Origin: Elusimicrobia bacterium GWD2_63_28
GTDB taxonomy: Bacteria > Elusimicrobiota > Elusimicrobia > Elusimicrobiales > UBA9959
Reading direction: 5' to 3'
Length of the DNA: 64,000 nucleotides
NCBI GenBank assembly: GCA_001799895.1
Contig: MGUI01000004.1
Span: 84,961 to 148,960 of the forward strand
A model generated the notes under the pieces. That model was not told the DNA's origin, did not search any database, and saw only the letters and a program-made list of their open reading frames with translations. The position numbers were made by a program, and so were the translations under genes. This document shows, one piece after another, positions 1,323 to 60,266 of this stretch (position 1 is its first letter; every line of letters begins with the position of its first letter).

Positions 1323-1343
1323 TTAGTACAATAATATCAAAAT
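1323..1343. promoter_or_regulatory. Back-to-back promoters for two divergent leaderless genes
   Basis: Only 21 bp separate the two start codons. On the plus strand TAATAT (1332-1337) ends 6 nt before the ATG at 1344. On the minus strand TATTAT (1336-1331) ends 8 nt before the ATG at 1322. The two -10 hexamers overlap, no ribosome binding site is present for either gene, and any -35 elements must lie inside the opposite gene. Transcription would start at or within a few bases of each start codon. Confidence 0.55.
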
Positions 1344-3377
1344 ATGGGGCTTTTCCTTTTGTTCGGCTTCTATTCCCTGCTGGCGCAGGCCCTGCTGCTG
1401 CGGGAGATCACGCAGGTTTTCGCCGCGCACGAGCTGTCGCTGGCCGCCGCGCTGGGCTGCTGGCTGCTGTGGACCGCCGCCGGGGCGCGCCTGGCGCGGA
1501 GCGCCGGAGACAGCTCCTTCAGGACCGGGGCGCTGCTGTTCGCGGCGGCGGCCCCCCTCAACTTGCTGCTGGCGCGCCTGGCCCCCGGCGTGCTGCCGGC
1601 CCTGGCCCAGCCGGGACTGGTACTGATGCTGACAGGTTCCGCCCTGCTCTGCCTGCCGGCCGGAGTGGCCAACGGCTACGCCGCCGGCGCCGCCCTGCGG
1701 AGCAGGCCCGCATATTTCTACGCCGCCGAAGCGGCGGGCGCCGCGCTGGCCGGGCTGTTCACCATCTTCTACTACCGCTCTTTTCCCGGCCTTGAGGCGG
1801 CGGTTGTACTGGCCGCCCCGGCCCTGGCCTTCTGCGCCGTCTATTCCCGCCCCTTCTCCCCCCGCCGGGCCGCCGTAGCCCTGGCCGCCGCGCTGGCGGT
1901 GGGCGGAGCCGTGCTGGCGGCCCCGCGCTGCTGGACGCTCAAGCCGCCGGCCCCGGCGCCGTCGGAAGTTATAGGCACGGAGGGCGGCCGCCTGGCGCTG
2001 GCCGGGGGCGCTTTCTACGAGGACGGCCGCCTGCTGCGCGCCCCGGAGGACACCTCTGCCGAGGACCTGGCGCACATACCGCTGCTGGCTTTGAAACGGC
2101 CGGGCCGGGTGCTGCTGCACGGCGGCGGGGCTTTCTTCGCCCTGCCCGAGGTGCTCAAGCACAAACCCGAGGCCGTGGAAATAGCCGAGCCCGACGGTTT
2201 CAAGGCCGCCGCCCTGGCGGCCAGGACCGGCGCCGACGCCGGTAAATTCACGCTGCTGCGCGCCGACCCGCGCGCGCTTCGCGGCAGGGACGCCCATTAC
2301 TCGGCGATCTTTAACGCCGGGGGCGCCCCGGAGAACGCCGCGCAGAACCGGTTCTACACGCTGGAATATTTCAGGCGGGCCGCCGCCCTGCTGGAGCCGG
2401 GCGGGGTGCTGGTTTTCCAGCTGCCTTTCGCCGAGAACTATGTGCCCCCGCGGGCGGCCTACGCCGCGGCCTGCGTGCTGGCCTCCGCCCGGGAGGTTTT
2501 TCCGTCGGTGGAACTGCTCCCCGGCGCGAAGCTGACGGTGCTGGCCTCTAAAAAACCGCTGAACCTGGACCCGGCGCTCCTGGCGGCGGCCTGCGCGCGC
2601 CGCGGGCTCAAGAGCAGGACCGTCACGCCCGACACCCTCCCCTTCCTGCTGCATCCTTACCGCCGGGCCTGGGCCGCGGGCGAAATAGACAAGGTGAAGC
2701 GCCCGCCGCTCAACACGGACCTGAACCCGCTGGCTTATTTCAGTTTCTGGCGGGCCTGGCTTTCCATGGTCATGTCGCCGTCGGCCCTCCTCGGCGTGGC
2801 GGCCCTGGCCGGGCTCGGTCTGTACGGCTTATACCAACTGAGGAGCGCGCTGAGTTTCGCTCCGGGCGAGCGCACCGGCGAGGCTTTCCTTATCGGCTTC
2901 TGGGGTCTGGCCTTCGAGACCGCCGCGCTGCTGGCCTTCCAGGCGCGTACCGGGCGGCTGAGCCCCGAGCTGGGCGCCATGTTCGCGCTGTTCATGGCCG
3001 GGGCCGCCGCCGGCGCCTGGGCCGCCAAGGACAGGCCTGCGAAGTGGCTGCTTTTCCTCGAGGCCGGGGCCGCCGCGCTGGCCCTGGCCGCCGCGCTGCG
3101 GCCGGAACTGGCGCAGCCGGCCTGGGGCGCGAGGTTTTTAATATTTACCGGAGGCCTGCTGTCGGGCAGCTTCTTCGCCGCCGCCGCGGGCAGGACCGGG
3201 AACAGGATTTACGCCTGGGACCTGGCCGGCGGGGCCGCCGGAGGCCTGGCCGCGGGGGCTTTCGCCGCGCCGCTGGCCGGGATAGGCGGCGCTTTCTATT
3301 TGGCCGCAGCTGCCGCGCTGGGCGCGCTGGCGGGCGGGCTCTGGCGCTCCTCGAAAGAATCTACCGTAAAAGAATAA
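1344..3377 (+). CDS. Polytopic membrane protein with spermidine synthase-like domain
   Basis: 677 residues: N-terminal membrane helices (about 1-195), a soluble domain (about 205-460), then further membrane helices to the end. The middle domain follows the spermidine-synthase pattern: a glycine-rich HGGGAFFALPEVLKH, an EIAEPD that would hold the nucleotide acid, NRFYTLEYFRRAAALLEPGG, and NTDLNPLAYF near its end. Membrane-embedded spermidine-synthase homologues are common in environmental bacteria and most have no known substrate. The position where true enzymes carry the catalytic Asp (usually DxxxxD) reads IFNAGG, so aminopropyl transfer is doubtful. Its 3' end overlaps the convergent Memo-AMMECR1 gene by 82 bp. 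It is probably leaderless. Confidence 0.7.
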   Translation: MGLFLLFGFYSLLAQALLLREITQVFAAHELSLAAALGCWLLWTAAGARLARSAGDSSFRTGALLFAAAAPLNLLLARLAPGVLPALAQPGLVLMLTGSALLCLPAGVANGYAAGAALRSRPAYFYAAEAAGAALAGLFTIFYYRSFPGLEAAVVLAAPALAFCAVYSRPFSPRRAAVALAAALAVGGAVLAAPRCWTLKPPAPAPSEVIGTEGGRLALAGGAFYEDGRLLRAPEDTSAEDLAHIPLLALKRPGRVLLHGGGAFFALPEVLKHKPEAVEIAEPDGFKAAALAARTGADAGKFTLLRADPRALRGRDAHYSAIFNAGGAPENAAQNRFYTLEYFRRAAALLEPGGVLVFQLPFAENYVPPRAAYAAACVLASAREVFPSVELLPGAKLTVLASKKPLNLDPALLAAACARRGLKSRTVTPDTLPFLLHPYRRAWAAGEIDKVKRPPLNTDLNPLAYFSFWRAWLSMVMSPSALLGVAALAGLGLYGLYQLRSALSFAPGERTGEAFLIGFWGLAFETAALLAFQARTGRLSPELGAMFALFMAGAAAGAWAAKDRPAKWLLFLEAGAAALALAAALRPELAQPAWGARFLIFTGGLLSGSFFAAAAGRTGNRIYAWDLAGGAAGGLAAGAFAAPLAGIGGAFYLAAAAALGALAGGLWRSSKESTVKE

Positions 3378-6928: not shown

Positions 6929-8815
6929 TTAAAAGCTTTTGGCCGCGCCCCTGCCGGCCAGCCAGGCGGAGGCGGCACCGGCTATCTTCTCGGGGGTCAG
7001 CCCGGCCTCCGCGTAAAGTTCGTCCGGGCGGCCCTGCTCCACGTAGGCGTCGCCTATGCCCAGGCGCAGGACGCGGGCGTCTATGCCCTCTTCGTTGAGG
7101 AACTCCAGCACGGCCGAGCCGAAGCCGCCGGCCAGCGCGTTATCCTCGACGGTTATCAGCGGCCCCGCGGCGGCCAGGGAGCGGATCAGCTCTCCGTCCA
7201 GCGGTTTGGCGAAGCGCATGTCCGCCACGCCCGCCTCTACCCCGTAGGCCTGCAGCAGCTCCGCGGCCCTCAAGGCGGGGTGCACGCGGTTGCCGATGGC
7301 CAGGAAATTCACGTCGCGCCCGCGGGACAGCAGGCGCCCCCTGCCCAGCGGCAGGACTTTAAGTTCGGGGTCCAGCGGCACGCCGAAGCCGCGGCCGCGC
7401 GGATAGCGCAGCAGGGCGGGCTGGCCGCAGGCGAAGGCCGTGGCCAGCATGTGCCGCAGTTCGTTCTCGTCGGCCGGGGCCATGATCACCAGGTCGGGCA
7501 CCATGCGGAACAGCGACAGGTCGAAGACGCCGTGGTGGGTGGGGCCGTCCTCCCCCACCAGGCCGGCGCGGTCCATGGCGATCACGACCGGCAGCTTCTG
7601 CAGCGACACGTCGTGCTGCACCTGGTCGAAAGAGCGCTGCATGAAGGAAGAATAGATGGCGGCCACCGGCTTCATCCCCTCGGCGGCCAGGCCGGCCGCG
7701 AAGGTGACCGCGTGCTCTTCGGCTATGCCCACGTCGTAGTAGCGCGCGGGGAAGGCGTCGCGAAAAAGGTCCAGCCCCGTTCCTTCGGGCATGGCGGCGG
7801 TTATAGCGCAGATCTTCGGGTCTTTTTTCGCCAGCTCCACGAGGGTGCGGCCGAAGACGGAGGTGAAGGTGGGCGCGGCCTGGCCGGGCGCGCCGGGCCT
7901 GCTGGCCTCTCCGGTCTCTATGTCGAACTTGGGGGTGCCGTGGAACTCCGTCGGGGAATCCTCGGCGGGCTCATAGCCGCGGCCCTTCTTGGTGACCACG
8001 TGCAGCAGCACCGGCCCCTTCAGGTCCTTCACGTAGCCGAGCACGCGCACCAGCTCGGGGAGGCTGTGCCCGTCGACCGGGCCGAAATAGGCGAAGCCCA
8101 TTTCCTCGAAGATCATGCCGGGGAAGAAGAAGACGCGGGCGCGCTTGATGATGCGGCGTATCACCTTGCCGGTGATGGGAAAGCGGCCCAGGAAGATCTC
8201 CATGCGGCGCACGGCGCGCTGCACCGAGCCCCGAGTGAGCAGCTTGGTCAGGATGTGGCCGAGGCGGCCCACGCGCTCGGAGATGAACATCTGGTTGTCG
8301 TTGAGCACCACCAGCAGGTCCGTGCCGAGGTGCCCGATGTTCTGCATGGCCTCCCAGGCCATGCCGCCGGTCATGGCCCCGTCGGCCACCACGGCCACCA
8401 CGCGGCGCGCGGGGCCGCCCTGGTCGCGGGCCGCGGCCATGCCGGCCGCCGCGGAAAGGGCGGTGGAGGCGTGCCCGGCGCCGAAGGCGTCGTACTCGGA
8501 CTCGTAGCGCTTGAGGAAGCCGGACAGCCCGCCCCGGGTGCGGATGGTGTTGAAGCGCGCGGCACGGCCGGTGAGGATCTTGTGGGCGTAGGTCTGGTGG
8601 CCGGTATCAAAAACTATGCGGTCGGCCGGTGTGTCAAAAACGTAGTGCAGGGCGAGGATCAGGTCCGTCGCGCCGAGGCTGGAGGCCAGGTGGCCGCCGG
8701 TGCGGCTGACGCCCTCTACTATCAGCTTGCGGACTTCGGCCGCCAGCGCGGGCAGCTCGCCCACGCGCAGCTTCTTGAGGTCAGCGGAGCCGTTAATGCC
8801 GGGCAGCAGCGCCAT
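6929..8815 (-). CDS. dxs: 1-deoxy-D-xylulose-5-phosphate synthase
   Basis: 628 residues, the usual length. It condenses pyruvate and glyceraldehyde 3-phosphate with thiamine diphosphate, the first step of the MEP isoprenoid pathway, in the cytoplasm. Visible signatures are TGHQTYAHKILTGR near the N-terminus, the thiamine-diphosphate motif VADGAMTGGMAWE ending in LNDNQM, and the pyrimidine-binding half with GIAEEHAVTFAAGLA and DRAGLVGEDGPTHHG. The first Gly of the family GDG is Ala here (ADG). The ATG at 8815 overlaps the stop of ispA by one base (TGATG) and has GGGAGG upstream; a longer frame runs back inside ispA and is not credible. It belongs to a five-gene operon. Confidence 0.95.
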   Translation of the reverse strand: MALLPGINGSADLKKLRVGELPALAAEVRKLIVEGVSRTGGHLASSLGATDLILALHYVFDTPADRIVFDTGHQTYAHKILTGRAARFNTIRTRGGLSGFLKRYESEYDAFGAGHASTALSAAAGMAAARDQGGPARRVVAVVADGAMTGGMAWEAMQNIGHLGTDLLVVLNDNQMFISERVGRLGHILTKLLTRGSVQRAVRRMEIFLGRFPITGKVIRRIIKRARVFFFPGMIFEEMGFAYFGPVDGHSLPELVRVLGYVKDLKGPVLLHVVTKKGRGYEPAEDSPTEFHGTPKFDIETGEASRPGAPGQAAPTFTSVFGRTLVELAKKDPKICAITAAMPEGTGLDLFRDAFPARYYDVGIAEEHAVTFAAGLAAEGMKPVAAIYSSFMQRSFDQVQHDVSLQKLPVVIAMDRAGLVGEDGPTHHGVFDLSLFRMVPDLVIMAPADENELRHMLATAFACGQPALLRYPRGRGFGVPLDPELKVLPLGRGRLLSRGRDVNFLAIGNRVHPALRAAELLQAYGVEAGVADMRFAKPLDGELIRSLAAAGPLITVEDNALAGGFGSAVLEFLNEEGIDARVLRLGIGDAYVEQGRPDELYAEAGLTPEKIAGAASAWLAGRGAAKSF

Positions 8816-9741
8816 CAGCTCTCCCTCCCGTATACGAAGGCGGCCAGGCCGGCCAAAGCCTGCCTGGGGCCGCGGCGCCCGCTCACTTTGCCGAGGCTGG
8901 CCAGCGCGCGCTCCCTCAGGCTTTCCGCCTTGGCGCGCGCCCCCTCTACCCCCAGCAGCGAGGCGTAGGTCAGCTTGCAATTGCGCGCGTCGCTGCCGCT
9001 CTTGCCCAGCTTCTTCTTGTCGGCTGTCACGTCGAGGATGTCGTCCGCCACCTGGAAGCAGAGGCCCAGCTCCCGCCCGAAGGCCGAGAGGGCTTTGAAA
9101 TCTTTTTCCGGCGCCCCGGCCAGCGCTGCGCCCATTTCCACGGCGGCGGTTATCAGGTCGGCGGTCTTGTGCAGGTGTATGTAGCCAAGCAGCTCCAGGC
9201 CGCGGCGCCGGCGAGCGGCGGTGATTTTGCCAGCCAGGAAACCCTCAGCCCCGAGGTCCGCCGCCTGGCCGGACACCATGCCCCGCGCTCCGGCGCGGGC
9301 GGCAAGGACCGCCGCGGCCCGCAGCAGGCTGGCGGGCTTTACCCGGGCGGGATATTTAGAGCTGAGCAGGGTGGTGAAGGCGTCGGTGAGCAGGGCGTCC
9401 CCGGCCAGTATGGCCAGGGCCTCGCCGTAGACTTTGTGGCTGGTGGGCCGGCCGCGGCGCAGGTCGTCGTCGTCCATCGCCGGGAGGTCGTCGTGCACCA
9501 GGGAATAGGTGTGCACCATCTCCAGGGCGCAGGCGGCGGGCAGGATGTCGCGCGCCTTGCCGCCGAACAGCTCGTAGGAGGCTCCCAGCAGGACGGGCCG
9601 CAGGCGCTTGCCGCCGGCCGCCAGGGAATAGGTCATGGCCCCGGCCAGGCGCGGCTGGGCGCCTTCGAGGCGGGAGATGAAGGACGGGAGGCTCCGGTTA
9701 ACCGCGGCGGCGCGCTCCTTTATATATCTTTCGATATCCAT
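8815..9741 (-). CDS. ispA: Short-chain polyprenyl (farnesyl-type) diphosphate synthase
   Basis: 308 residues. It should add isopentenyl diphosphate to allylic diphosphates to make C15 or C20 products. Both aspartate-rich magnesium sites are present: DDLPAMDDDD (residues 84-93) and ADDILD about 145 residues later, plus the GGKRLRP substrate motif near residue 43. It is the first gene of the operon ispA-dxs-LOG-radical SAM-Memo/AMMECR1, so product and precursor synthesis are cotranscribed. The start ATG at 9741 has no ribosome binding site and follows a perfect TATAAT by 8 nt, so the message is probably leaderless. Chain length cannot be fixed by eye. Confidence 0.92.
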   Translation of the reverse strand: MDIERYIKERAAAVNRSLPSFISRLEGAQPRLAGAMTYSLAAGGKRLRPVLLGASYELFGGKARDILPAACALEMVHTYSLVHDDLPAMDDDDLRRGRPTSHKVYGEALAILAGDALLTDAFTTLLSSKYPARVKPASLLRAAAVLAARAGARGMVSGQAADLGAEGFLAGKITAARRRRGLELLGYIHLHKTADLITAAVEMGAALAGAPEKDFKALSAFGRELGLCFQVADDILDVTADKKKLGKSGSDARNCKLTYASLLGVEGARAKAESLRERALASLGKVSGRRGPRQALAGLAAFVYGRES

Positions 9742-9760
9742 CAGGTGAAATTATACAAAT
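9742..9760 (-). promoter_or_regulatory. Promoter of the ispA-dxs operon, leaderless type
   Basis: On the minus strand TATAAT (9755-9750) is followed by 8 nt and then the ispA ATG. A transcript begun 7-9 nt after the hexamer would start at the ATG. No clear -35 element is seen. Confidence 0.6.
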
Positions 9761-17373: not shown

Positions 17374-18012
17374 TCAGTAGCCCAGGTCTTCGTTGACCAG
17401 CATAACCAGAATGTCGCTTGCGGAGGGTTTCTTCCAGAGCAGGGTCACCGCGTTGCAGATGCGGCTCTTGCCGGCGCAATCCACGCAGCGGCCGGCCGCC
17501 ACGCAGGGATTGTCCTTCTCCAGGCGGATATTATTGGCGATGGCCGCCACGTTGCGGGAGCGCCACAGGCCCTCTTCCTCATCCTTGGCGATCTTGTTCA
17601 CGCCGGCTATCAGCACCGTCTTGCGCGGGCCGTAGATAACGGCGGCGCCGCGGTTGCCGTTGCCGTCTATGAAGATGAGTTTCCCGTCGAGGGTTACGGC
17701 CTGGGGCGAGGCCAGGTATATATCAGAGGCCAGCGCGGCCAACCAGACGGCGCGCTTCTCTTCGGGGGACATGCCGGGCTTGTGGGTTATTATCTCGTTG
17801 CCGGCGGCAGCAAGCGCCTCGGGCAGGCCCAGGGCGGCCACTGTCATGGAACCGCCTACTCCTATCTTCTTCCCCCTCCCCGCCAGCGCCAGCAGGGCGG
17901 CGGCGGCGGCGGGGCCGCTCTCGTAAACCTCGGCCGCGAAGTTGTTCTTGCGCAGCGCCGCGGCGGCGTTCTGGAGGAGTTTTAAATTGAGGGTCTGGCG
18001 GTGTTTTTCCAT
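17374..18012 (-). CDS. LUD domain protein (DUF162, LutC-like)
   Basis: 212 residues. The LUD fold is shown by KKIGVGGSMTVAALGLPE, DIYLASPQAVTLDGKLIFID and YGPRKTVLIAGVNKIA. Family members take part in lactate utilisation or act as stand-alone enzymes of unknown reaction. The C-terminal stretch NPCVAAGRCVDCAG and a further cysteine in SRICN could bind a metal or a cluster. No lutA or lutB gene is near, so lactate use is unproven. The ATG at 18012 lacks a ribosome binding site and follows TGGTAAAAT by 6 nt, so it is probably leaderless. The promoter lies directly behind the terminator of the upstream gene. Confidence 0.85.
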   Translation of the reverse strand: MEKHRQTLNLKLLQNAAAALRKNNFAAEVYESGPAAAAALLALAGRGKKIGVGGSMTVAALGLPEALAAAGNEIITHKPGMSPEEKRAVWLAALASDIYLASPQAVTLDGKLIFIDGNGNRGAAVIYGPRKTVLIAGVNKIAKDEEEGLWRSRNVAAIANNIRLEKDNPCVAAGRCVDCAGKSRICNAVTLLWKKPSASDILVMLVNEDLGY

Positions 18013-18030
18013 GGCTAGATTTTACCAAAG

Positions 18031-21326: not shown

Positions 21327-21368
21327 CGTGTCCCCTTTATCCGTGTGTAAATTGTAAAATATATCAAT
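21327..21368. promoter_or_regulatory. Overlapping divergent promoters, pullulanase and DUF4015 hydrolase
   Basis: On the minus strand TACAAT (21356-21351) precedes a short leader with AAGGGG and the pullulanase ATG. On the plus strand TAAAAT (21355-21360) ends 8 nt before the ATG at 21369, a leaderless arrangement. The two -10 hexamers share two bases, so only one polymerase can bind at a time. Confidence 0.55.
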
Positions 21369-22493
21369 ATGCTTCATACAGCGTTTTTTCTGCTTCTCGC
21401 CTCTCTTCCCCCCGTTTCCGCCGGCGTGCAAACCGCCACTGAAACCGCCAAAGCACAGGTCTCAACCACAACCATCCGCGGGCTGGTGCTGGCCGACCGC
21501 CGCGTGCGCGGCATACACCTCACCTGCTGGGGCGCCGGCTCGCCAAAGCTCCGCAAGGAACTTATCCGGAAGATCTCCAATTCCGTAATCAACACCGTCG
21601 TCATCGCCCTCAAGGAAACCGACGGCAAGGTCTACATCCCCGGCGTGGAGAAGGCCCACAAGTGGGGCTCTTACCAGGCCGCCATTACCGACCCGGCCGC
21701 CATGCTTAAAGATTTCAAGGGCGCCGGGCTCTACACCGTTGCCCGCATAGTTGTCTTCAAGGACAAGGTGGTCCCCAAGGTGCGCCAGGACCTGGCCGTG
21801 CGCAACCCCGACGGCGGGCTGTGGCGCAGCCGCAACGGCGCCACCTGGGTGGACCCGTACCACAAAGAGGTCTGGGACTACAATTTGGACCTGGCGGAGC
21901 TGGCGGCCAAGCTCGGCTTCGACGAGATCCAGTTCGACTATATCCGCTACCCTTCGGAGGGCAACACCTCCCTGTGCCGCTACTCCAAGCCGCACAACCG
22001 CCAGGCGTCCACCAAAAACCTGAAGGATTTCCTGGACTACTCGCGCAAGCGCCTGGCCCCCTACAAGGTAAAGATCTCCGCCGACGTGTTCGGCCTGACC
22101 ACCTCGGTTAAGGACGACATGGGCATAGGCCAGGATATAGCTACGCTGGCCGCCGGCGCCGACTATGTCTACCCGATGATGTACCCGTCGCACTATAACC
22201 CCGGCGAGTACAACCTGAAGAACCCCAACGGCAGCCCTTTCAAGGTTATAAACCGCGGCCTGAAGGACGCCATGGGCAAGCTGGGCAAGGATTACGCCCG
22301 CATCCGCCCCTATCTGCAGGACTTCTCCATGGGCTATACTTACGGCCCGTCGGAAGTGCGCGCTCAGATCATGGCGACGCGGCTCAACCACCTGGAAAGC
22401 TGGGTGCTGTGGAACGCGGCCAACCGCTACACCTGGGCGGCCCTCACCCCCCAGTCCTACCGCGCCTTCGTGGACCCCGAATACAAACAATAA
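21369..22493 (+). CDS. Secreted putative glycoside hydrolase (DUF4015)
   Basis: 374 residues. Signal peptide about 1-19. The DUF4015 pattern is clear: RRVRGIHLTCWGAGSPK, VINTVVIALKETDGKVYIP, LGFDEIQFDYIRYPSEG, SADVFGLTT and DYVYPMMYPSHY. The family has a TIM-barrel fold related to GH13 and GH29-like enzymes and its substrate is unknown. In the motif FDEIQFDYIRYP an acidic pair lies at the strand end where glycosidases keep catalytic acids. The gene is probably leaderless, ends at a bidirectional terminator, and is back-to-back with a pullulanase, which fits glycan breakdown. Confidence 0.87.
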   Translation: MLHTAFFLLLASLPPVSAGVQTATETAKAQVSTTTIRGLVLADRRVRGIHLTCWGAGSPKLRKELIRKISNSVINTVVIALKETDGKVYIPGVEKAHKWGSYQAAITDPAAMLKDFKGAGLYTVARIVVFKDKVVPKVRQDLAVRNPDGGLWRSRNGATWVDPYHKEVWDYNLDLAELAAKLGFDEIQFDYIRYPSEGNTSLCRYSKPHNRQASTKNLKDFLDYSRKRLAPYKVKISADVFGLTTSVKDDMGIGQDIATLAAGADYVYPMMYPSHYNPGEYNLKNPNGSPFKVINRGLKDAMGKLGKDYARIRPYLQDFSMGYTYGPSEVRAQIMATRLNHLESWVLWNAANRYTWAALTPQSYRAFVDPEYKQ

Positions 22494-23801: not shown

Positions 23802-24473
23802 TTACCAAAAACCCGGCAGCAGCCGGTACGTCACGCGCCCGGCGTATTCTTTATAGCCGGGCAGGGCGCGCAGCAGCAGCCGGTCCTCCAGCGCGGCGCG
23901 CGCGGCCAGGCCGCCCGCCAGCAGCCCCGCCGGCAGGAAGGCGCTCGGCGAGCCCAGGGCCGCAGGGGTGCAGACCAGGACCACGATACCCGCCAGGTAG
24001 ATGGGGTGGCGCACCGCGCGATACGGTCCTCTGTCCACCGCGGTCTGGCCCGGTTGTATGGCCGACACGCCGATAGCGAAGGGGTTGGAGAGCAGGGCCC
24101 AGGTAAACAGCGCGCCTGCGGCGCAGATAGGCAGGAAAGCCGCCGCGGCGAGCGCCGTAAAACCTGACGCCGGGCCTTCCATGCCGCAGATGAGCAGGGT
24201 AGTGGCCAGCAGGGCCGCGCCGAAGAAGACGAAGAACTTGTCCCAGGGCTCGGAGGCGGCCGGGGCCCCGGTCTCGCGCAGGCGCAGCAGTTCGGGCGAG
24301 CGGCTGCCCAGCAGCGTGATGTTCAGCCCGGACCAGGCGGCGTAGAGCAGCAAATACACCCAGCCGGCCGGCCAGCGCAGGTCCTGCGCCGGCAGGAAAA
24401 GCAGCAGGGCCAGGAGACAGACCCTGAAGCCGGCGCTGAAAATGACGGAGAGGTAAGGCGTTCCAGTTGCCAC
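23802..24473 (-). CDS. Isoprenylcysteine methyltransferase-like membrane protein
   Basis: 223 residues with about five hydrophobic segments. The C-terminal part matches the ICMT/PEMT superfamily: RGPYRAVRHPIYLAGIVV, where the HPIY binds S-adenosylmethionine, and ALPGYKEYAGRV near the end. Substrates of bacterial members are mostly unknown. The start is a GTG at 24473, chosen because a perfect TATAAT ends 6 nt before it and no ATG fits better, so it is probably leaderless. It is divergent from the big peptidase with 26 bp between starts. Confidence 0.8.
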   Translation of the reverse strand: MATGTPYLSVIFSAGFRVCLLALLLFLPAQDLRWPAGWVYLLLYAAWSGLNITLLGSRSPELLRLRETGAPAASEPWDKFFVFFGAALLATTLLICGMEGPASGFTALAAAAFLPICAAGALFTWALLSNPFAIGVSAIQPGQTAVDRGPYRAVRHPIYLAGIVVLVCTPAALGSPSAFLPAGLLAGGLAARAALEDRLLLRALPGYKEYAGRVTYRLLPGFW

Positions 24474-24499
24474 GGGAAAATTATAGTATATCCTCGTAT
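24474..24499. promoter_or_regulatory. Overlapping divergent promoters, methyltransferase and M1-M28 peptidase
   Basis: On the minus strand TATAAT (24485-24480) ends 6 nt before the GTG at 24473. On the plus strand TATAGT (24482-24487) or TAGTAT (24484-24489) ends 10-12 nt before the ATG at 24500. No ribosome binding site is seen for either gene. Confidence 0.5.
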
Positions 24500-39909: not shown

Positions 39910-40010
39910 ATTCCCCCCCCTGAGCCGGGCCCCGGCCCGGCAGTCCACATTCTACACAATCCGCGGCCCCCGAAAAAAGCGCGGCCCTGAAAATATTCTA
40001 CAATGAACAG

Positions 40011-41225
40011 ATGGGCCTGAAACTGCTTATAAATTCCCTGTTCCGCGGCGGCGCTGAAAAACAGTTCGCGGCCCTGGCGCAGCGCCTGCCCCACGACGAA
40101 CTGCTGCTGCTGGAGCGGGAAACCGCGCCGCCTGACAGCCTTAAGCCGGTGTTCCTTTCAGGCCACACCTCTGCCACCTCTTCGCTGCTGAAGACCTCCT
40201 CTATCCCCCTCTACGCCCGCCGCCTGGCCGCCCTGGCCGGCCCCGGCGACACGGTGCTCTCTTTCATGGAGCGGTCCAATATCGTCAACGTCCTGGCCGC
40301 GGCCCGCAGCGGCCACAGGGCCGTGATCTGCGAGCGCACCCGCCCCTCGGGCGAGTTCTCCGGCCTGCGCGGCGCGCTGATGCGGCCGCTGATACGGCGC
40401 TTCTACCCCCGCGCCGCCCTGGTAGCCGCCAACTCCGAAGGCGTAAAGCGGGACCTGGCCGAAAACTTCGGCGTGCCGGCTGAAAAGATCCAGGTCGTCC
40501 ACAACGGCTGCGATACCGCCGCCCTCGGCAGGCTGGCCTCCGAGCGGCTGCCCGAAGGCTGGGCCCCGGTCTTCAACAGGCCCGTGATAGTCACCGGCGG
40601 GCGCCTTACGGCCGCCAAGGGCCATTGGCATCTGCTCCGCATTTTCAAAGAACTTAAGAAAGCCGCACGCGGCGAGGCGCTGGTTTTCCTCGGCGAAGGC
40701 GAGCTCGGCCCCTATCTGCGCGCCCTCTCCGGGGAACTCGGCCTCAAAACTTTCGAGGGGCCCGGCCTGCCGCCGCCCGACGCGGACGTCTATTTCGCCG
40801 GCTTCCGCGAAAATCCCTTTCCCTTCATAGCGCGGGCCCGGCTCTTCGCTTTCACTTCGCTCTGGGAGGGCTTTCCCAACGCCCTGCTGGAAGCCATGGC
40901 CTGCGGCGCCCCGGTGATCTCCGCCGACTGCGATTCGGGCCCCAGGGAGATCCTCGCCCCGTCCACGCCTTTCGCGGCGAGGGCTTCCGCCCCCGAGCAC
41001 GCCGATTACGGCCTGCTGATGCCGCCGCTCTCCGGGGCCAGGCTGCCCGCCGGAGCGCCGCTGCAGCCTGCCGAGCTGGCCTGGGCTGAAAAACTTTCAG
41101 AGATGCTGTCCGCCCCCGCCGCCCTGCGCGCCTACGCCGCCGCCGGGTTCAGGCGCGCGGCCGACTTCGAATTTTCCAAAACCGCCGCCCGCTGGCAGGA
41201 ACTCCTGCGGCGGGCTACCACATAA
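40011..41225 (+). CDS. Glycosyltransferase family 4 protein
   Basis: 404 residues with the GT-B fold. N-terminal MGLKLLINSLFRGGAEKQF is the acceptor-domain opening; the C-terminal domain has VIVTGGRLTAAKGHWHLLR and SLWEGFPNALLEAMACG with the catalytic glutamate region. It should transfer a sugar from a nucleotide donor to a lipid or glycan. No other polysaccharide gene is near. The ATG at 40011 follows TACAAT by 6 nt and has no ribosome binding site. Its 3' end overlaps the convergent PorV-like gene by 11 bp. Confidence 0.9.
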   Translation: MGLKLLINSLFRGGAEKQFAALAQRLPHDELLLLERETAPPDSLKPVFLSGHTSATSSLLKTSSIPLYARRLAALAGPGDTVLSFMERSNIVNVLAAARSGHRAVICERTRPSGEFSGLRGALMRPLIRRFYPRAALVAANSEGVKRDLAENFGVPAEKIQVVHNGCDTAALGRLASERLPEGWAPVFNRPVIVTGGRLTAAKGHWHLLRIFKELKKAARGEALVFLGEGELGPYLRALSGELGLKTFEGPGLPPPDADVYFAGFRENPFPFIARARLFAFTSLWEGFPNALLEAMACGAPVISADCDSGPREILAPSTPFAARASAPEHADYGLLMPPLSGARLPAGAPLQPAELAWAEKLSEMLSAPAALRAYAAAGFRRAADFEFSKTAARWQELLRRATT

Positions 41226-45837: not shown

Positions 45838-45924
45838 GCTGGTCTCCAGTTAACTGTATACCGTTGCTATATTATATAAATGCCGTATAACAAATTTGTT
45901 GCGCCGTTTTGGTAAAATTAGGGT

Positions 45925-46254
45925 ATGGACGACAGGCGCGTGGCGGTGAACGAGGATTATGTGGAGCCGGAGCTGCTGAGCCCGGGCTCTTCCGGCCCCC
46001 GCTCCGAAGGCCCCAGGCGGCAGGAGGTTCCCCCGCAGCCCCCGGGCCTGCTGGCGCGCCTGAAGGCCTTTATAGCCGCCGGCCTGGCACTGGTGGGCGT
46101 AGCCCTGATAATGGCCGGCGCCCTGCTCACCTCCACCGTCATAGGCGCCATCATCGGCATCCCGCTGCTGATCCTCGGCGCCCTGGTCTTCTTCCTGCTC
46201 TTCAAACTCCTCGCCTCCGGCTCCCCCTCCCCCGTCATCTTCCGCCGCTTCTAA
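45925..46254 (+). CDS. Small two-helix membrane protein, unknown
   Basis: 109 residues. A Pro-rich, charged N-terminal region (1-40) is followed by two hydrophobic segments (about 46-68 and 72-95) rich in Gly, Ala, Ile and Leu. No family is recognised. The ATG follows TGGTAAAAT by exactly 6 nt with no ribosome binding site, a leaderless arrangement. It is divergent from the Fn3 protein gene and convergent with the macroglobulin gene, with the 93-bp repeat copy 2 in between. Confidence 0.65.
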   Translation: MDDRRVAVNEDYVEPELLSPGSSGPRSEGPRRQEVPPQPPGLLARLKAFIAAGLALVGVALIMAGALLTSTVIGAIIGIPLLILGALVFFLLFKLLASGSPSPVIFRRF

Positions 46255-46399: not shown

Positions 46400-49300
46400 T
46401 TACTTCACGGTGAGGGTGAAGCCGGAGGAGTGGGCGGCGAATTCGGGGGCGTACATGGACTGGATCACCGCCGCGCCCGCCTTGAAAGTGCCGGGCGTCG
46501 TCGGGCGCACGCGGTACTTCAGCACGTACTCGCCGTGCGGCAGCCACTCCACAAAGAAGTTCGTCAGCGAATCCCTCGGCTCCTCATAGCGGCCCAGCTG
46601 GTCCCACTTCCAGCCGCTGGTCAGCGCCTCCGCCTCGAAGCCCGCCGCCTTCGGGTCCTTGATATGCACGTACTCGAACTGGCTGCGCGTGCGCACCGTC
46701 AGGTGCACCTCCACCTGGTCGCCCACCGCCACCGTGTCCCCCTCGGCCAGCGGCTTAAGCGTATAGGTGTCGCCCTCTTTCTCGCGCAGGAAATACTTGC
46801 GGGACACGTTCATCATTCCGTCTGGAGATTCCGCCGCCGTCTTGTCGGTGGTATAGATACCGGTGAAGGAAGCGAAGGCCAGTCCCGGCCCTTTCTTCTC
46901 TACCGTCGGCGACAGGTCCTTCCTGCCTATCTCGCGGCCGTATTTCGACCAGCGCAGCGGCTTGGCCACCCAGTCGAAAGGCTGCAACTGTATATTCTCG
47001 GAGGTCGCGCCCCATTTCAGGGAGTAGGTCTCCGGCTTGTCCAGCGCGCCCTTGGCCTTCATCACGTCGAGCAGCGAGTAGATGGCCGCCGCCGAGGCCT
47101 TGGTGGACTTCCACTCATTGGCCTTGCGGTTGAACAGCAGCCAGCGCACCAGCCCCGGGATCTTCCCATCCTTCGGGCGCAGCGCCAGCAGCGTGCGCAG
47201 GAGGAAGGCGTGCTTCTCCACCGTGTCGTTGTACCATAGCCAGGAGATCTTCTCCGGGGTCCAGTAAACCCCGGCCGTATCGTCGGAGCGCGCGCCGTCC
47301 ATGGCGCGGGCCAGGTAGTCCTGCGCCTTTTCCTTCTCCCCCAGCCTGTGGTAGACATAGGCCGCGTAGGCCTTGCCGAAAGCCGTCATGGCGTTGGCGT
47401 GCTTGTCGGCGTAATCGGCCCACACCTTGGCGTACTCGCGCGCCTGGGCGCTCTCAGGCCAGGCCTCCGGGAAAGAGGTCACCACATAAGCCGCGTAAAG
47501 CACCAGCGAGGTCTGCTCCGGCTCCGCCTTCATATGCCGCGGTATTTCGTCGAGCACGTAGCGCAGCGCCCGCTGCGCCGCGTCCTTCGGGATGTCCACG
47601 CCGTAGCGGGCGGCCTCGGCCAGCCCCTCCAGCACATAGAGCGTCATGTGCAGGTTCGGGCGGCCGCCGGGGAACCACGGGAAAGAGCCGTCGGGATGCT
47701 GGTAGGATTTCAGCTTGCCCAGCGCGTCTTCCTTCTCCGTTTCCACCAGCTTCGGGTTCAGCATGTCTATCGCCGGCGAGCCGGCCTCGCGGCCTTTCGA
47801 CTCGCGCTCCCAGGGCGTTTCCATCAGCGTCATCAGGCGCACGGGGTTGTCGCGCTCCCACTCCGGCGTGAGCGTGGCGCGCTTGGGGATCTTGGCCACC
47901 GAGGCGCGCAGCTCCGGGTATTTGCGGTAGAAGCCGTTGGTGATGGCCAGCGGCACATAGCGGTTGAGCAGCTGCTCGGTGCATTCGTAAGGATAATGCA
48001 CCAGGAAGGGCAGGCTGTTGAGCACGGTGAGTATCAGCTGCGGCTGGATCTCCAGGTGCAGCGACTCCACCACGCGCGTGGGATCGGCGGCTTCCAGCTC
48101 GGGCAGGCTGAAGGTCTTCGACGAATCCCCGTCGAGGGAAGCCACGCCCGAGGCTATCAGCCGCTCGCGCGACGGCAGCACCGGCAGGTCGTTCTCCTGC
48201 GCGTCGGCCAGGCGGCCGGAGCGTGCCACCGCACGCACCTTGTAGGCGCCGGTGCCGCGCGGGGCCAGCGTATCCCAGTAGAGGGCCGCGGTGCCGTTGG
48301 GCTTTACGGTAAAAGGCCGCGTCAGGGCGCCCAGGGCGAAGTCGGCGTGGGCGGGCGCGCCGTCGCGCGTCACCGACAGCGTCACCTCGCCGGAGAGCTC
48401 CCCGGCCGTGTCATTGGTCACCACCGCCGTCAGGCGGGACTTGTCCCCCTCGCGGAAGAAGCGCGGCAGGTCCAGCCGCACCATCAGGTCCTTCTTGGTG
48501 ACCGCCTCGGCGGAGAAGGAGCCGCGCCGCGCGCTCCGGGTCAGCACGTAGGAAGAGATCTTCCAGGAAGTGAGCCTCTCGGGTATTTTAAACGAGAAAC
48601 CCGCCTCGCCCTTGAACACCTTCAGCTGCGGGTTGTAATAGGCGGTCTCGGAGAAGTCGGTGCGCACCTGCACTTCGGGCTGCGGGGCAGTCCCTTCACC
48701 GCCGGAAGCTCCCGGCGCAAAGTCCTTCTTCTCCGCCGACTTCATCTTGGCGCTAGCCGGGGCCATGGACTCGCGCGAGATATCTCCCTCATTGGACTGC
48801 ATGGACCCGCGCACCGCCGCCACCGAGGCCTCCTGCAGCACCCCGTCCCCCTCGTAGTCAAGACTCTTGCCCCTGAAACCGTACCCTCCCCCGTACACCC
48901 GGGTAGAACCTATGCGCAGCGAGGCCAGCCGCTCTTCCTTCGCGGCGCGCCTGAAAGCGTCCATCATGCGCTGTATCACGCCGGTCTTCACCGGAAGGCC
49001 CACGGCGCGGGGCGTGAACAGCGACCCCAGGGCCTCGCCCTGCGAGTAGCGCCGGGGATACAGGGACTCGCCCCAGAAGCCGGCGTCGCGGCCGTAATAT
49101 TCCAGGGAGCGGTCGAACACCTTCACCAGCGCCTCGCCGGCCACCAGCCTGCCGGCGCTGTCCCTGGCCTTCAGCAGCCAGGAAACCTTCTGCCCCGGCG
49201 CCAGGGTCTTGTCGTAATCCAGCGAGAGCGAGACCGTCTTGTCCTTCATCGGCACGTCGGCCTCGGCCATCGCCGAGTAAACCTTGAACCCGCCGGCCCC

Positions 49301-52300
49301 GAGCCAGCGCAGCCCGAAGCCGCCGCGGTGCTCGGGCCCTATCTTCAGGCTGAAGATCGAAAGCCCGCCCTGCGGGACCTGCGCCCGGGAGAGCAGGAAA
49401 TTGCCGCCCAGCACCTCCACGTGCTTGACCCCCTTCAGGGCCGCGGCGCCCAGCAGCACGCGCGCGGTCTCGCCGGCCTGGTAGGAGTCCCGCTCGAAAA
49501 GCGCCACCGCCGGCAGCTTCAGCGCGGCGTTGCCCTTCCCGTCGGGCGAGGCGGAAACGATTATGACCTGGGACATGCTCTCGCCGCCCCACGGGTCCTT
49601 GGCTTTGAGCTTCAGCCTGTAAGCGCCCGGCGCCAGCCTGGCGAGTTTAATTTTGGAAGGCGCCTCTTTGGTGAAGGACACCTCTCCCTTGCCCGCCAGG
49701 GGGCCGTCGGGCACATTGCCGAACGCCTGCTCCAGCGACGGGTTGCGGCCGAAATAACCCCATTCTCGCCTGCCGTCCTCCCCATCCGGGGCTTTTTCCA
49801 GTTTATACAGCTCGTAGCGCCCCGGGCCCTGCTGCTGGGCGTCGTTGAGGTCCATCAGCCGGGCTTTCAGCTCAGCCGGGGCCTCGGGGGTAAAGAAGCC
49901 GGCCTCCGGCTTCACGTCGAACAGGTAGGCCTTGGAGCCCGCCCTGTAGTCGCGGGAGTCGGTTATCGTCCTCCCCCCGGCGTCGCGGGCCTCCACCGCC
50001 ACATGGTAGGAAGAAGGATAATCGGCATACTCCGCGCTCTCGGGCGCGGGCGTAAAGGTAAAGGAGAATTTCCCGTCGTCGCCGGTCTTTGTTTCGCCGG
50101 CGGCCACTTCGAAGCCGGGGCCCCCGCCGTAGAACCAGTTCCAGTACCAGCAGTAGCGCGGCAGGTAGCGCGAGCGCATGACCCGGTATTTTACGGGCGC
50201 GCCCGGCACCGGCGAGCCGAAGTAATATCTGACCTCGCCCGAGATTTCGGCCTTCTCGCCGTAGCGGTAAGGTTTTTTTGCCTCGGCCAGCTTCACCTCG
50301 AACTCCGGCCGCTTGTATTCCTCCACGCCGAAGCGCGACGAGCCGCTGAAATTGCGGCCGTACTCGCTCAGGGAGGCGGTCAGCGAATAGCTGCCCAGCA
50401 GGCGTCCTTCGGCTACCTTGAAGGCGCCCGCGGCGCTGCCCAGCCCGGTGAACGGGAGGGTCTTGGTATAGATCTCCTGCCAGTTCGCGTCCCGCGCCGT
50501 AACGGTGACGGTGCCCTTGCCGTCGTAGGCCCGGTAGCCGCGGGGCTGCCGCAGCAGCGCGGTGACCTTGAACTTCACCTCCTGCCCCGGGCGGTAAACC
50601 GGCCGGTCGGTTTCTGTGAACAGGCTGACCGGGGGCGGCACGTGCAGGCCCGCCGAGGCCTGCGAGTTCCAGTAGGCGTAGGCCCCGCCGTAGCTGAGCA
50701 GCGGGTCTATGGAAAAATACTCGTTGGACGGGTAGGAGACCGTGAAGTCGTAATTGAACAGCGCCGCGCCGTCGGCGCCCGTCTTGAGCGAGGTGCGCTG
50801 CCAGCCGCCGTAATGGGACTTGTGGTAAAAAGCGTCGATGTCGGCGCCCGGCAGGGCCTTGCCGTTCAGGGCGTTGACGGCGTAAAGGCGGAAGATGTCG
50901 GAGCTGGCCTGCCTGGCCGGGGCGGCCGGGTCGTAGAGGAAATCTTCAGGGTCGCCTTTTATGCCGGAGGTTCCCAGCAGGAAAATGTCGGTTATGTTCA
51001 CCGTGACGGCTTTCATCAGCGAGGCCCCGTCCTCGAAGCCGGAATCGCCGGAGGCAACCACGACGTAAAGGCCCTTGGTCAGGGGAGGAGAAGCCACCTC
51101 CTGCTCCTTGTACTGGTAGGGCCCGGGATAATCTATCTTCTGCTTCCACTCCAGGTCGCGCCGCTTGCGCAGGAACTCTTTAACCGCGTCCTGCTGCAGG
51201 TACTTTACGCGGCCCCAGCCCTGGTCGCCGTAGCGGCCTATGGAAGTCAGCTCCTGCGGCGTGGTCCTGTAGGCCCTGAAATACACTTCGGTCAGATTGC
51301 GGACGTTCACCTGCAGGATCTTCTTGCCCGGGGGCGGCGCGAAAGAAGCGGAGAGCTCCAGTTTGGGCATCTCTATTTCCGCGCGCAGCTTGGCGCATTG
51401 CGCGGCCGGCCTGGAGCCGGAGGCCTCCTCTTCCGCCTTGCGGCAAAGCTCTACGGCCTCCGTGAACTTCCCCGCCTCCTGCTCAAAAGCGGCGGCCCTG
51501 TAATAAGCCCAGCTCCTGGCCAGCGCCGTCTTGAATGCGCCCCCCCAGCCCCGCAGGGTCCGCAGGGCGCGGTCCCGCAGCGCGGCCCTGTCGTAAGAGG
51601 CCACCAGCCCGGCGTGGGAGAAAGGGATCATCAGCCGTTCGAGGCGCCAGTATTCGCGCGCGAAATCCATGGAGGACGAGCTCAGCCCGGCCGCCTCTTC
51701 GAAGATGGCCGCGGCTTTCAGCGCCGGGGCAGCGCCCGCGCTGTAATCGGCCTTGTAGCGCGGCTCGACGAAAGGCTCGGCCTTGGGCAGGGCGCCGGCG
51801 TGCCCGGCTTCGCTAAGCAGATAGCCGGTCCAGCGCAGCGCCGAGAAATCCCAGAGCGTTGGGGTGTAAGACAGCTCGGCGCCCTTGAGGTCCATGAAAT
51901 AATCCTGGCCCTCCAGGCGGTATTTCAGCAGCTCGCCGCGCAGCGCCCACAGGGAATCATAGTCGGCCTCCACCAGTTTGCGCCACTGGGCGGAAGTCAG
52001 TTTGGTGACATCCTTTACGCCCTTCTGCTCGTCGGAGGGCAGGGAATAGCCGTACTGCTGCAGGAACTGCCGCCCGGTGTCGGCGCGCAGCAGCAGGAAG
52101 CGGCCCCGCCAGAGCTGGTCCGGGGGCAGCTTCATGTCGGCCAGGCGCTGGGCGGCCTCGCCGTAGCGGAACAGCAGGCCTTCGCATTCGGCGGAGCGGT
52201 ACAGGGCCCGCAGACCTCCGTCGCCGGGCAGCCGCGCCGCCGGCGCGTAGAGCCCCAGGGCCTCTTCGTACCTGGCCTTGGCGAAAAGCTCGTCGGCCTT

Positions 52301-52363
52301 GTCCAACCCGCCGGCCGCGTGGGCCAGCCAAGGAAAGAGCAGCAGCGCTATTAAAGTTTTCAT
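46400..52363 (-). CDS. Secreted alpha-2-macroglobulin family protein
   Basis: 1987 residues, the longest gene here. Signal peptide about 1-16, then an N-terminal TPR-like helical part (about 20-330), macroglobulin MG domains (TDRPVYRPGQEVKFKVTALL at about residue 580), the A2M central domain, and a thioester domain with YPYECTEQLLNRYVP at about residue 1460, where C and Q can form the reactive thioester. The alpha-toroid (HPDGSFPWFPGG) and a receptor-binding-like end follow. Bacterial A2Ms trap foreign proteases in the periplasm; most are lipoproteins next to PBP1C, but no lipobox and no such neighbour is seen. It needs no frameshift. Confidence 0.93.
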   Translation of the reverse strand: MKTLIALLLFPWLAHAAGGLDKADELFAKARYEEALGLYAPAARLPGDGGLRALYRSAECEGLLFRYGEAAQRLADMKLPPDQLWRGRFLLLRADTGRQFLQQYGYSLPSDEQKGVKDVTKLTSAQWRKLVEADYDSLWALRGELLKYRLEGQDYFMDLKGAELSYTPTLWDFSALRWTGYLLSEAGHAGALPKAEPFVEPRYKADYSAGAAPALKAAAIFEEAAGLSSSSMDFAREYWRLERLMIPFSHAGLVASYDRAALRDRALRTLRGWGGAFKTALARSWAYYRAAAFEQEAGKFTEAVELCRKAEEEASGSRPAAQCAKLRAEIEMPKLELSASFAPPPGKKILQVNVRNLTEVYFRAYRTTPQELTSIGRYGDQGWGRVKYLQQDAVKEFLRKRRDLEWKQKIDYPGPYQYKEQEVASPPLTKGLYVVVASGDSGFEDGASLMKAVTVNITDIFLLGTSGIKGDPEDFLYDPAAPARQASSDIFRLYAVNALNGKALPGADIDAFYHKSHYGGWQRTSLKTGADGAALFNYDFTVSYPSNEYFSIDPLLSYGGAYAYWNSQASAGLHVPPPVSLFTETDRPVYRPGQEVKFKVTALLRQPRGYRAYDGKGTVTVTARDANWQEIYTKTLPFTGLGSAAGAFKVAEGRLLGSYSLTASLSEYGRNFSGSSRFGVEEYKRPEFEVKLAEAKKPYRYGEKAEISGEVRYYFGSPVPGAPVKYRVMRSRYLPRYCWYWNWFYGGGPGFEVAAGETKTGDDGKFSFTFTPAPESAEYADYPSSYHVAVEARDAGGRTITDSRDYRAGSKAYLFDVKPEAGFFTPEAPAELKARLMDLNDAQQQGPGRYELYKLEKAPDGEDGRREWGYFGRNPSLEQAFGNVPDGPLAGKGEVSFTKEAPSKIKLARLAPGAYRLKLKAKDPWGGESMSQVIIVSASPDGKGNAALKLPAVALFERDSYQAGETARVLLGAAALKGVKHVEVLGGNFLLSRAQVPQGGLSIFSLKIGPEHRGGFGLRWLGAGGFKVYSAMAEADVPMKDKTVSLSLDYDKTLAPGQKVSWLLKARDSAGRLVAGEALVKVFDRSLEYYGRDAGFWGESLYPRRYSQGEALGSLFTPRAVGLPVKTGVIQRMMDAFRRAAKEERLASLRIGSTRVYGGGYGFRGKSLDYEGDGVLQEASVAAVRGSMQSNEGDISRESMAPASAKMKSAEKKDFAPGASGGEGTAPQPEVQVRTDFSETAYYNPQLKVFKGEAGFSFKIPERLTSWKISSYVLTRSARRGSFSAEAVTKKDLMVRLDLPRFFREGDKSRLTAVVTNDTAGELSGEVTLSVTRDGAPAHADFALGALTRPFTVKPNGTAALYWDTLAPRGTGAYKVRAVARSGRLADAQENDLPVLPSRERLIASGVASLDGDSSKTFSLPELEAADPTRVVESLHLEIQPQLILTVLNSLPFLVHYPYECTEQLLNRYVPLAITNGFYRKYPELRASVAKIPKRATLTPEWERDNPVRLMTLMETPWERESKGREAGSPAIDMLNPKLVETEKEDALGKLKSYQHPDGSFPWFPGGRPNLHMTLYVLEGLAEAARYGVDIPKDAAQRALRYVLDEIPRHMKAEPEQTSLVLYAAYVVTSFPEAWPESAQAREYAKVWADYADKHANAMTAFGKAYAAYVYHRLGEKEKAQDYLARAMDGARSDDTAGVYWTPEKISWLWYNDTVEKHAFLLRTLLALRPKDGKIPGLVRWLLFNRKANEWKSTKASAAAIYSLLDVMKAKGALDKPETYSLKWGATSENIQLQPFDWVAKPLRWSKYGREIGRKDLSPTVEKKGPGLAFASFTGIYTTDKTAAESPDGMMNVSRKYFLREKEGDTYTLKPLAEGDTVAVGDQVEVHLTVRTRSQFEYVHIKDPKAAGFEAEALTSGWKWDQLGRYEEPRDSLTNFFVEWLPHGEYVLKYRVRPTTPGTFKAGAAVIQSMYAPEFAAHSSGFTLTVK

Positions 52364-54220: not shown

Positions 54221-54263
54221 TTTATAAAAAAGCCCCGCCGGCGCGGATCCGGCCGGCGGGGCT
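54221..54263 (-). terminator. Terminator of the aminotransferase gene, overlapping the EamA promoter
   Basis: AGCCCCGCCGGC (54231-54242) pairs with GCCGGCGGGGCT (54252-54263). On the minus strand the T-run continues directly into TATAAA (54226-54221), the -10 hexamer of the EamA gene. Confidence 0.82.
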
Positions 54264-56391: not shown

Positions 56392-56498
56392 TTTCCCTCC
56401 TAAAAAGTCCCGGGACCCGGGTTGCTCTCTCTATTATTACATAATTATAATAGTATTGGAACCCCCGCCCCTTTCGCGGTTTTTGCTATTATTATCCT

Positions 56499-60220: not shown

Positions 60221-60266
60221 GTACAATATAATAACATTTAGGGGGGCCTTTAGTGGAGGCCGGACG

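What the first reader, a model, noticed from the sequence alone, without database searches (positions are those of the whole stretch)
1323..1343. Widespread leaderless gene starts
A TANNNT hexamer ends 6-8 nt before the start codon and no Shine-Dalgarno sequence is present at 1322, 1344, 9741, 18012, 21369, 24473 (GTG), 40011, 45925, 54214, 56499 and 60220. Six of these have a gap of exactly 6 nt or very near. This is the geometry of promoters whose first transcribed base is the start codon. Other genes have strong AGGAGG sites, so two modes of initiation coexist.
Basis: seen in the sequence. Interest (0 to 1): 0.68.

Follow-up and report, generated by a model that had tools for sequence, protein, structure and literature searches.

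The report
Leaderless gene starts in Elusimicrobia
In this Elusimicrobia bacterium about one operon in eight appears to start its message exactly at the first codon, with the promoter touching the gene; this known way of starting genes had been described mainly in other bacterial groups.

Summary
Site 54214 fails (TATAAA behind a terminator-like hairpin); 60220 is on the minus strand. It is far above chance: of 376 operon leaders in 1.14 Mb of this Elusimicrobiota genome, 39 have TANNAT exactly 6 nt upstream; shuffles give 2.9, at most 11 of 1000. Operon-internal genes and E. coli lack the peak; Deinococcus plasmids show it. The excess is about 7% of genes, 12% of operon leaders; SD genes coexist. 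TGNTANNAT-N6-ATG outnumbers N12 spacing 7135 to 1649 in 189 genomes of the class, 2160 to 1656 in 105 other Elusimicrobiota, 287 to 238 in 25 other bacteria. At N6 the base before ATG is a pyrimidine in 77 of 83 listed matches of one family, against 17 of 39 at N12, as for an initiator at the A. The quoted span is the 21-bp gap between two divergent starts with overlapping -10 elements; it is 19-28 bp in 11 of 17 genomes of the genus. Known kind, apparently unreported lineage; no transcript ends were mapped.

The parts
1323..1343 (.). 21-bp gap between divergent start codons 1322(-) and 1344(+), holding two overlapping -10 elements
   Evidence: both genes adjacent and divergent in 17 of 23 same-genus genomes searched (own included), gap 19-28 bp in 11 of these 17
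1331..1339 (-). extended -10 TGATATTAT of the Fer4_5 membrane protein gene 186-1322, gap 8 nt
1332..1337 (+). -10 TAATAT of the spermidine-synthase-like gene 1344-3377, gap 6 nt
9750..9755 (-). -10 TATAAT of the polyprenyl synthetase gene 8815-9741, gap 8 nt
   Evidence: orthologues not tested
18019..18024 (-). -10 TAAAAT (TGGTAAAAT) of the LUD-domain gene 17374-18012, gap 6 nt
   Evidence: orthologues in G120 and G086 have SD-like sites instead
21355..21360 (+). -10 TAAAAT of the DUF4015 gene 21369-22493, gap 8 nt
   Evidence: GTAAAATAT at 8 nt kept in three same-genus genomes
24480..24485 (-). -10 TATAAT of gene 23802-24473 (GTG start), gap 6 nt; divergent neighbour starts at 24500
39999..40004 (+). 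-10 TACAAT of the glycosyltransferase gene 40011-41225, gap 6 nt
   Evidence: AATATTCTAGAAT at 5-6 nt kept in G110, G144 and G057, not in G120
45913..45918 (+). -10 TAAAAT (TGGTAAAAT) of gene 45925-46254, gap 6 nt
   Evidence: TAAAAT or TAGAAT at 6-7 nt kept in all four same-genus orthologues found
56484..56492 (+). extended -10 TGCTATTAT of the YgiQ-type radical SAM gene 56499-58265, gap 6 nt
   Evidence: TTGCTATnAT or TTGCTACTAT at 6-7 nt kept in five same-genus and two same-family orthologues while DNA further up differs
60228..60233 (-). -10 TATTAT (TGTTATTAT) of the RNase D-like gene 59081-60220, gap 7 nt
   Evidence: a TANNAT box at 5-9 nt in all eight orthologues shown
54221..54226 (-). 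rejected site: TATAAA behind a terminator-like hairpin and T-run, before 54214

Best explanation
The sites are promoters, probably of the housekeeping sigma factor, whose -10 element (often the extended form TTTGnTAtAAT, usually without a recognisable -35) is placed so that transcription begins at the A of the start codon. The mRNA then has no leader and is translated by ribosomes that recognise the 5'-terminal AUG (or GUG) directly; operon-internal genes and the other operon leaders use SD or other sites. Shown here: motif, exact spacing, position in operons, conservation, distribution over the phylum. Inferred: sigma factor, actual transcription start, mode of translation. At 1323-1343 the arrangement is doubled: two divergent genes appear to be served by overlapping -10 elements inside a 21-bp gap.
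For: Sharp peak at exactly 6 nt in gene starts called without promoter information. Absent in operon-internal genes (TANNNT 6 at d=6 among 431) and in E. coli (1 at d 5-8, 9.7 expected, 139 operon leaders), present in Deinococcus plasmids (7 against 0.5 per position, 80 operon leaders). SD-like tetramers in 0 of 50 operon leaders with TANNAT at 6-7 nt, 121 of 326 other leaders, 215 of 431 internal genes. Extended TG in 18 of 50 such boxes against 25 of 219 boxes lying 15-60 nt upstream. Whole genome: 50 matches of TGNTANNAT-N6-ATG against 5 of N12 and 4 of the reversed pattern; class-wide 7135 against 1649 in 189 genomes. Pyrimidine at -1 in 77 of 83 listed order-f2 matches at N6 against 17 of 39 at N12; own genome 37 of 48 at d=6 against 515 of 854 other starts. 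Box and spacing conserved in orthologues.
Against: No mapped 5' ends, ribosome profiling or proteomics. SD absence is partly forced because the -10 box occupies the SD position. Orthologues of 18012 (two with clear SD) and of 54214 do not keep the box. At d=7 the -1 pyrimidine bias is absent (11 of 20). Whole-genome pattern matches were not checked to be gene starts. An unexplained smaller excess at d=2 (10 of the 100 listed matches). The gene caller is home-made and under-calls low-GC regions.
Confidence: 0.9

Rival explanations
1. The boxes are real promoters but transcription starts a few bases up- or downstream of the codon, giving very short leaders or starts inside the gene with a later initiation codon.
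For: Smaller peaks at 7-8 nt (28 and 18 against about 13); natural scatter of start choice by RNA polymerase.
Against: The peak is at exactly 6 nt and the -1 pyrimidine bias is tied to that register; protein alignments with relatives begin at residue 1 to 3 of YgiQ and at residue 1 of several others.
Confidence: 0.07
2. The TA-rich hexamers are chance matches in AT-rich gaps, selected by start calling.
For: Gaps are AT-rich in a 62-64% GC genome; 54214 and probably 42261 are such cases.
Against: Position-specific excess over the same gaps, over shuffles, over the N12 spacing and over E. coli.
Confidence: 0.01
3. The AT-rich box is an mRNA element (for example an S1 binding site or an unstructured region) in leadered transcripts rather than a promoter.
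For: U/A-rich leaders may help SD-free initiation in several phyla (PMC5397173, passages read).
Against: Exact spacing to the codon, TGnTANNAT form, near absence in operon-internal genes (1.7% excess against 11.9%), and divergent pairs too close for leaders.
Confidence: 0.02

Closest known systems
TA-led (leaderless) genes of bacteria, Zheng et al. 2011 (PMC3160421; abstract, section 7 and searched passages read)
   Same: TANNNT in high-GC genomes about 10 bp upstream of the start codon, no SD, coexisting with SD genes
   Different: Here about 7%.
-10 motif adjacent to ORFs in Deinococcus-Thermus, Zhong et al. 2025 (PMC12340547; outline and section 7 read)
   Same: TANNNT 6-7 bp before the ORF beside GGAG-type RBS genes
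   Different: Their commonest form is TACACT and nearly a third of genes; here TAtAAT, often with TTTGn in front, and a smaller share.
Mycobacterium tuberculosis leaderless transcriptome, Cortes et al. 2013 (PMC3898074; abstract start in listing and passages read)
   Same: TANNNT, no -35 consensus, mapped leaderless starts; closely juxtaposed divergent promoters, one divergent pair leaderless on both sides
   Different: Extended TGN in only 7% of their TANNNT promoters; here in 18 of 50 boxes at 6-7 nt.
Bidirectional promoters with a shared -10 element, Warman et al. 2026 (PMC12825309; abstract and passages read; the 2021 paper it cites is not held)
   Same: Overlapping -10 elements on opposite strands; divergent starts commonly 18 bp apart, also 10 and 23
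   Different: In the 1323-1343 case both transcription starts would coincide with start codons, 22 bp apart, so the gap would be the entire 5' region of two genes.

Membership tests
leaderless (TA-led) genes of bacteria | TANNNT -10-like box ending about 6-8 nt before the start codon, above background | tested here: met
   controls
leaderless (TA-led) genes of bacteria | no SD upstream | tested here: met
   0 of 50 operon leaders with the box; partly forced by the box's position
leaderless (TA-led) genes of bacteria | found at genes that need their own promoter | tested here: met
   excess 11.9% of operon leaders, 1.7% of operon-internal genes
leaderless (TA-led) genes of bacteria | transcript starts at the start codon | not testable with these tools
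   only indirect: pyrimidine at -1
leaderless (TA-led) genes of bacteria | translated from a 5'-terminal AUG/GUG without leader | not testable with these tools
   no expression data
bidirectional promoter with shared -10 (span 1323-1343) | overlapping -10 elements on both strands | tested here: met
   hexamers TATTAT(-) and TAATAT(+) overlap by five bases
bidirectional promoter with shared -10 (span 1323-1343) | divergent transcription starts near 18 bp apart (10 and 23 also common) | tested here: inconclusive
   22 bp if both are leaderless; starts not mapped
bidirectional promoter with shared -10 (span 1323-1343) | transcription in both directions | not testable with these tools
   no transcript data

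The most novel reading that the evidence does not exclude
Leaderless initiation from a TTTGnTATAAT promoter at a fixed 6-nt distance is an inherited, class-wide mode of gene expression in Elusimicrobia, a lineage separate from Actinobacteria and Deinococcus-Thermus. It includes conserved divergent gene pairs in which one symmetric -10 region of about 20 bp is the whole 5' control region of both genes, so that choosing the orientation of RNA polymerase is the only switch.
Probability: 0.55. Interest if true: 0.6.

Novelty: new member of a known kind. Interest (0 to 1): 0.42.

Why it matters
Leaderless initiation is discussed mainly for Actinobacteria, Deinococcus-Thermus and archaea. A class-wide signature in a little-studied, largely uncultured phylum adds a further lineage, explains operon starts for which SD-based gene finders have no signal, and gives a sequence-only way to place promoters and start codons in these genomes. 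The tight divergent pairs are a natural test of bidirectional promoters where both products would be mRNAs without leaders.

Tried and rejected
Rejected as false positives: 54214 (TATAAA after a terminator-like hairpin, not conserved) and 42261 (TAGTCT+6, one base behind a co-directional gene). A claim that leaderless boxes lack -35 more than leadered ones was dropped: 3 of 50 against 14 of 219 had at least five of six matches, both above shuffles. A symmetric both-sides pattern at 5-6 nt gave 103 sites against 41 for the reversed pattern in 177 class genomes (sums added by hand from the table), none in this genome: a modest excess, not used as main evidence. The 16S anti-SD tail, initiation factors and S1 of this genome were not examined. 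The DUF4015 search gave no loci. Family f9 and other small groups are too thinly sampled to say whether the signature is absent.

Full report
Where it lies. The window is G000:C4:84961-148960 of a 3.29-Mb, 74-contig assembly, 64.5% GC. A scan of named genomes with the YgiQ protein of the window found Elusimicrobia bacterium GWC2_64_44 as the nearest relative (93% identity). Its genome shows the same pattern counts as handle G241, listed as same genus, so I take the two to be the same genome and the window to come from phylum Elusimicrobiota.

Check of the sites. Ten of the eleven listed starts have TANNNT ending 6-8 nt before the codon and no SD-like site; six have exactly 6 nt. 54214 does not: TATAAA follows a terminator-like hairpin. 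60220 is a minus-strand start. My caller moved 21369 to 21426, but orthologue alignments begin at the ATG of 21369 in same-genus relatives, so I keep 21369.

Is it more than chance? I wrote a gene caller that picks starts from coding potential and start codon only and applied it to the window and 60 further stretches, 1,142,252 bases, 922 usable starts. TANNNT counts by distance peak at exactly 6 nt: 57, then 28 at 7, against about 13. In 376 operon leaders 44 against 9.4 per position; in 431 operon-internal genes 6, no peak. TANNAT at 6 nt: 39 against 2.9 in shuffles (maximum 11 of 1000). By bootstrap the excess at 6-8 nt is 6.8% of all genes (4.8-8.9) and 11.9% of operon leaders (7.7-16.5). 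Same pipeline on controls: E. coli K-12, 250 kb, 139 operon leaders, 1 against 9.7 expected at 5-8 nt; Deinococcus plasmids, 200 kb, 80 operon leaders, 7 at 6 nt against 0.5 per position.

What the motif is. Aligned on the 44 operon leaders with TANNNT at 6 nt, the upstream profile reads A54 T77 T61 T72 G43 n TAtAAT (percent), with no -35 consensus: an extended -10. TG precedes 18 of 50 boxes at 6-7 nt against 25 of 219 boxes further up. SD-like tetramers occur in 0 of 50 of these leaders, 121 of 326 other leaders and 215 of 431 internal genes. A control over base classes at the same four positions shows that classes with at least 8 genes keep SD in a median of 64% of starts, with one other AT class (ATTT, 9 genes) also at zero, so part of the absence may be forced by position. 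At 6 nt the base before the codon is a pyrimidine in 37 of 48 own starts against 515 of 854 others; at 7 nt it is 11 of 20.

How far it extends. The whole own genome has 50 TGNTANNAT-N6-ATG matches, 5 with N12, and 4 of the reversed N6 pattern. N6 and N12 share codon phase, so N12 is a fair control. Over 294 Elusimicrobiota genomes (all rows used): same class 7135 against 1649, N6 larger in 186 of 189; other classes 2160 against 1656, larger in 77 of 105. Within the class, family f2 (79 genomes, 3760 against 623) and f7 (34 genomes, 1160 against 278) are strongest among the well sampled, f3-f6 and f9 weak. Among 28 named genomes three Elusimicrobia give 109 against 25 and 25 others 287 against 238 (sums by hand). 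In the f2 matches printed for seven genomes the base at -1 is T in 72 of 83, pyrimidine in 77, against 17 of 39 at N12; these were the printed strings, not all matches.

Conservation. Upstream of YgiQ the extended -10 at 6-7 nt is kept in five same-genus and two same-family genomes while DNA further up changes; more distant relatives differ. DUF4015 (21369), 45925 and the RNase D-like gene (60220) behave alike; 40011 partly; 18012 is replaced by SD-like sites in relatives and 54214 is not kept. Orthologues of 1322, 1344, 9741 and 24473 were not in the stretches read.

The quoted span itself. 1323-1343 is the entire gap between two divergent genes. The minus-strand TATTAT (8 nt) and plus-strand TAATAT (6 nt) overlap by five bases. 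Each gene's -35 region would lie in the other's coding sequence. In this genome sample 9 of 91 divergent pairs have gaps of 21-48 bp and none is shorter; in E. coli 31 of 32 pairs have gaps over 60 bp and one is an apparent overlap. The two genes are adjacent and divergent in 17 of 23 same-genus genomes searched, own included; start-to-start gaps, extrapolated from protein alignments and not read as letters, are 19-28 bp in 11, and 34, 34, 42, 70, 77 and 128 in six. A gap this short leaves no room for two leadered SD genes unless the promoters lie inside the neighbouring coding sequence.

Literature. Leaderless genes with TANNNT are well known (PMC3160421, PMC12340547, PMC3898074). Searches of the held library for 'Elusimicrobi' with 'leaderless' (2 papers) and with 'Shine-Dalgarno' (5 papers) listed no paper that from its title and abstract treats leaderless genes in this phylum; PMC10783764, passages read, lists its anti-SD as the usual CCUCCUUU. 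Searches on leaderless with bidirectional or overlapping divergent promoters listed no systematic account; M. tuberculosis has a divergent pair leaderless on both sides (PMC3898074, legend passage). Subscription papers and preprints are not held, so absence in print is only as wide as these searches.

Verdict. The observation and its reading stand, one site excepted. It is a known kind of gene start in a lineage where I found no report. Class-wide extent and the conserved double-start gap lift the interest; lack of any transcript data limits it.

Noticed in passing
G000:C4 about 20-65 kb (L012, L013, part of L014), upstream of the window: Low-GC island (46-47% against 62-64%) whose large ORFs match dynamin-like, SNF2 helicase, PLD, nSTAND-like (below cut-off), HerA-like and HATPase_c_3 domains; it looks like an acquired defence island.
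   Followed up: partly
46400-52363 (-): 1987-aa bacterial alpha-2-macroglobulin (bMG10, A2M, MG2 domains).
   Followed up: no
60220(-)/60267(+): Second tight divergent pair (46 bp): RNase D-like gene and pseudouridine synthase; in several relatives the pseudouridine synthase has TTGCTATnAT 8-9 nt before ATG.
   Followed up: partly
L219 (order f2, handle G034): Divergent pair with a 23-bp gap whose centre ATGATATCAT is a palindromic extended -10, 6 nt from one start and 7 nt from the other.
   Followed up: no
whole own genome: TGNTANNAT followed by ATG at a distance of 2 nt also looks over-represented (10 of the 100 listed matches); unexplained.
   Followed up: no
18012: Leaderless-type start here, SD-type start in two relatives (G120, G086): a case of exchange between the two modes.
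   Followed up: no
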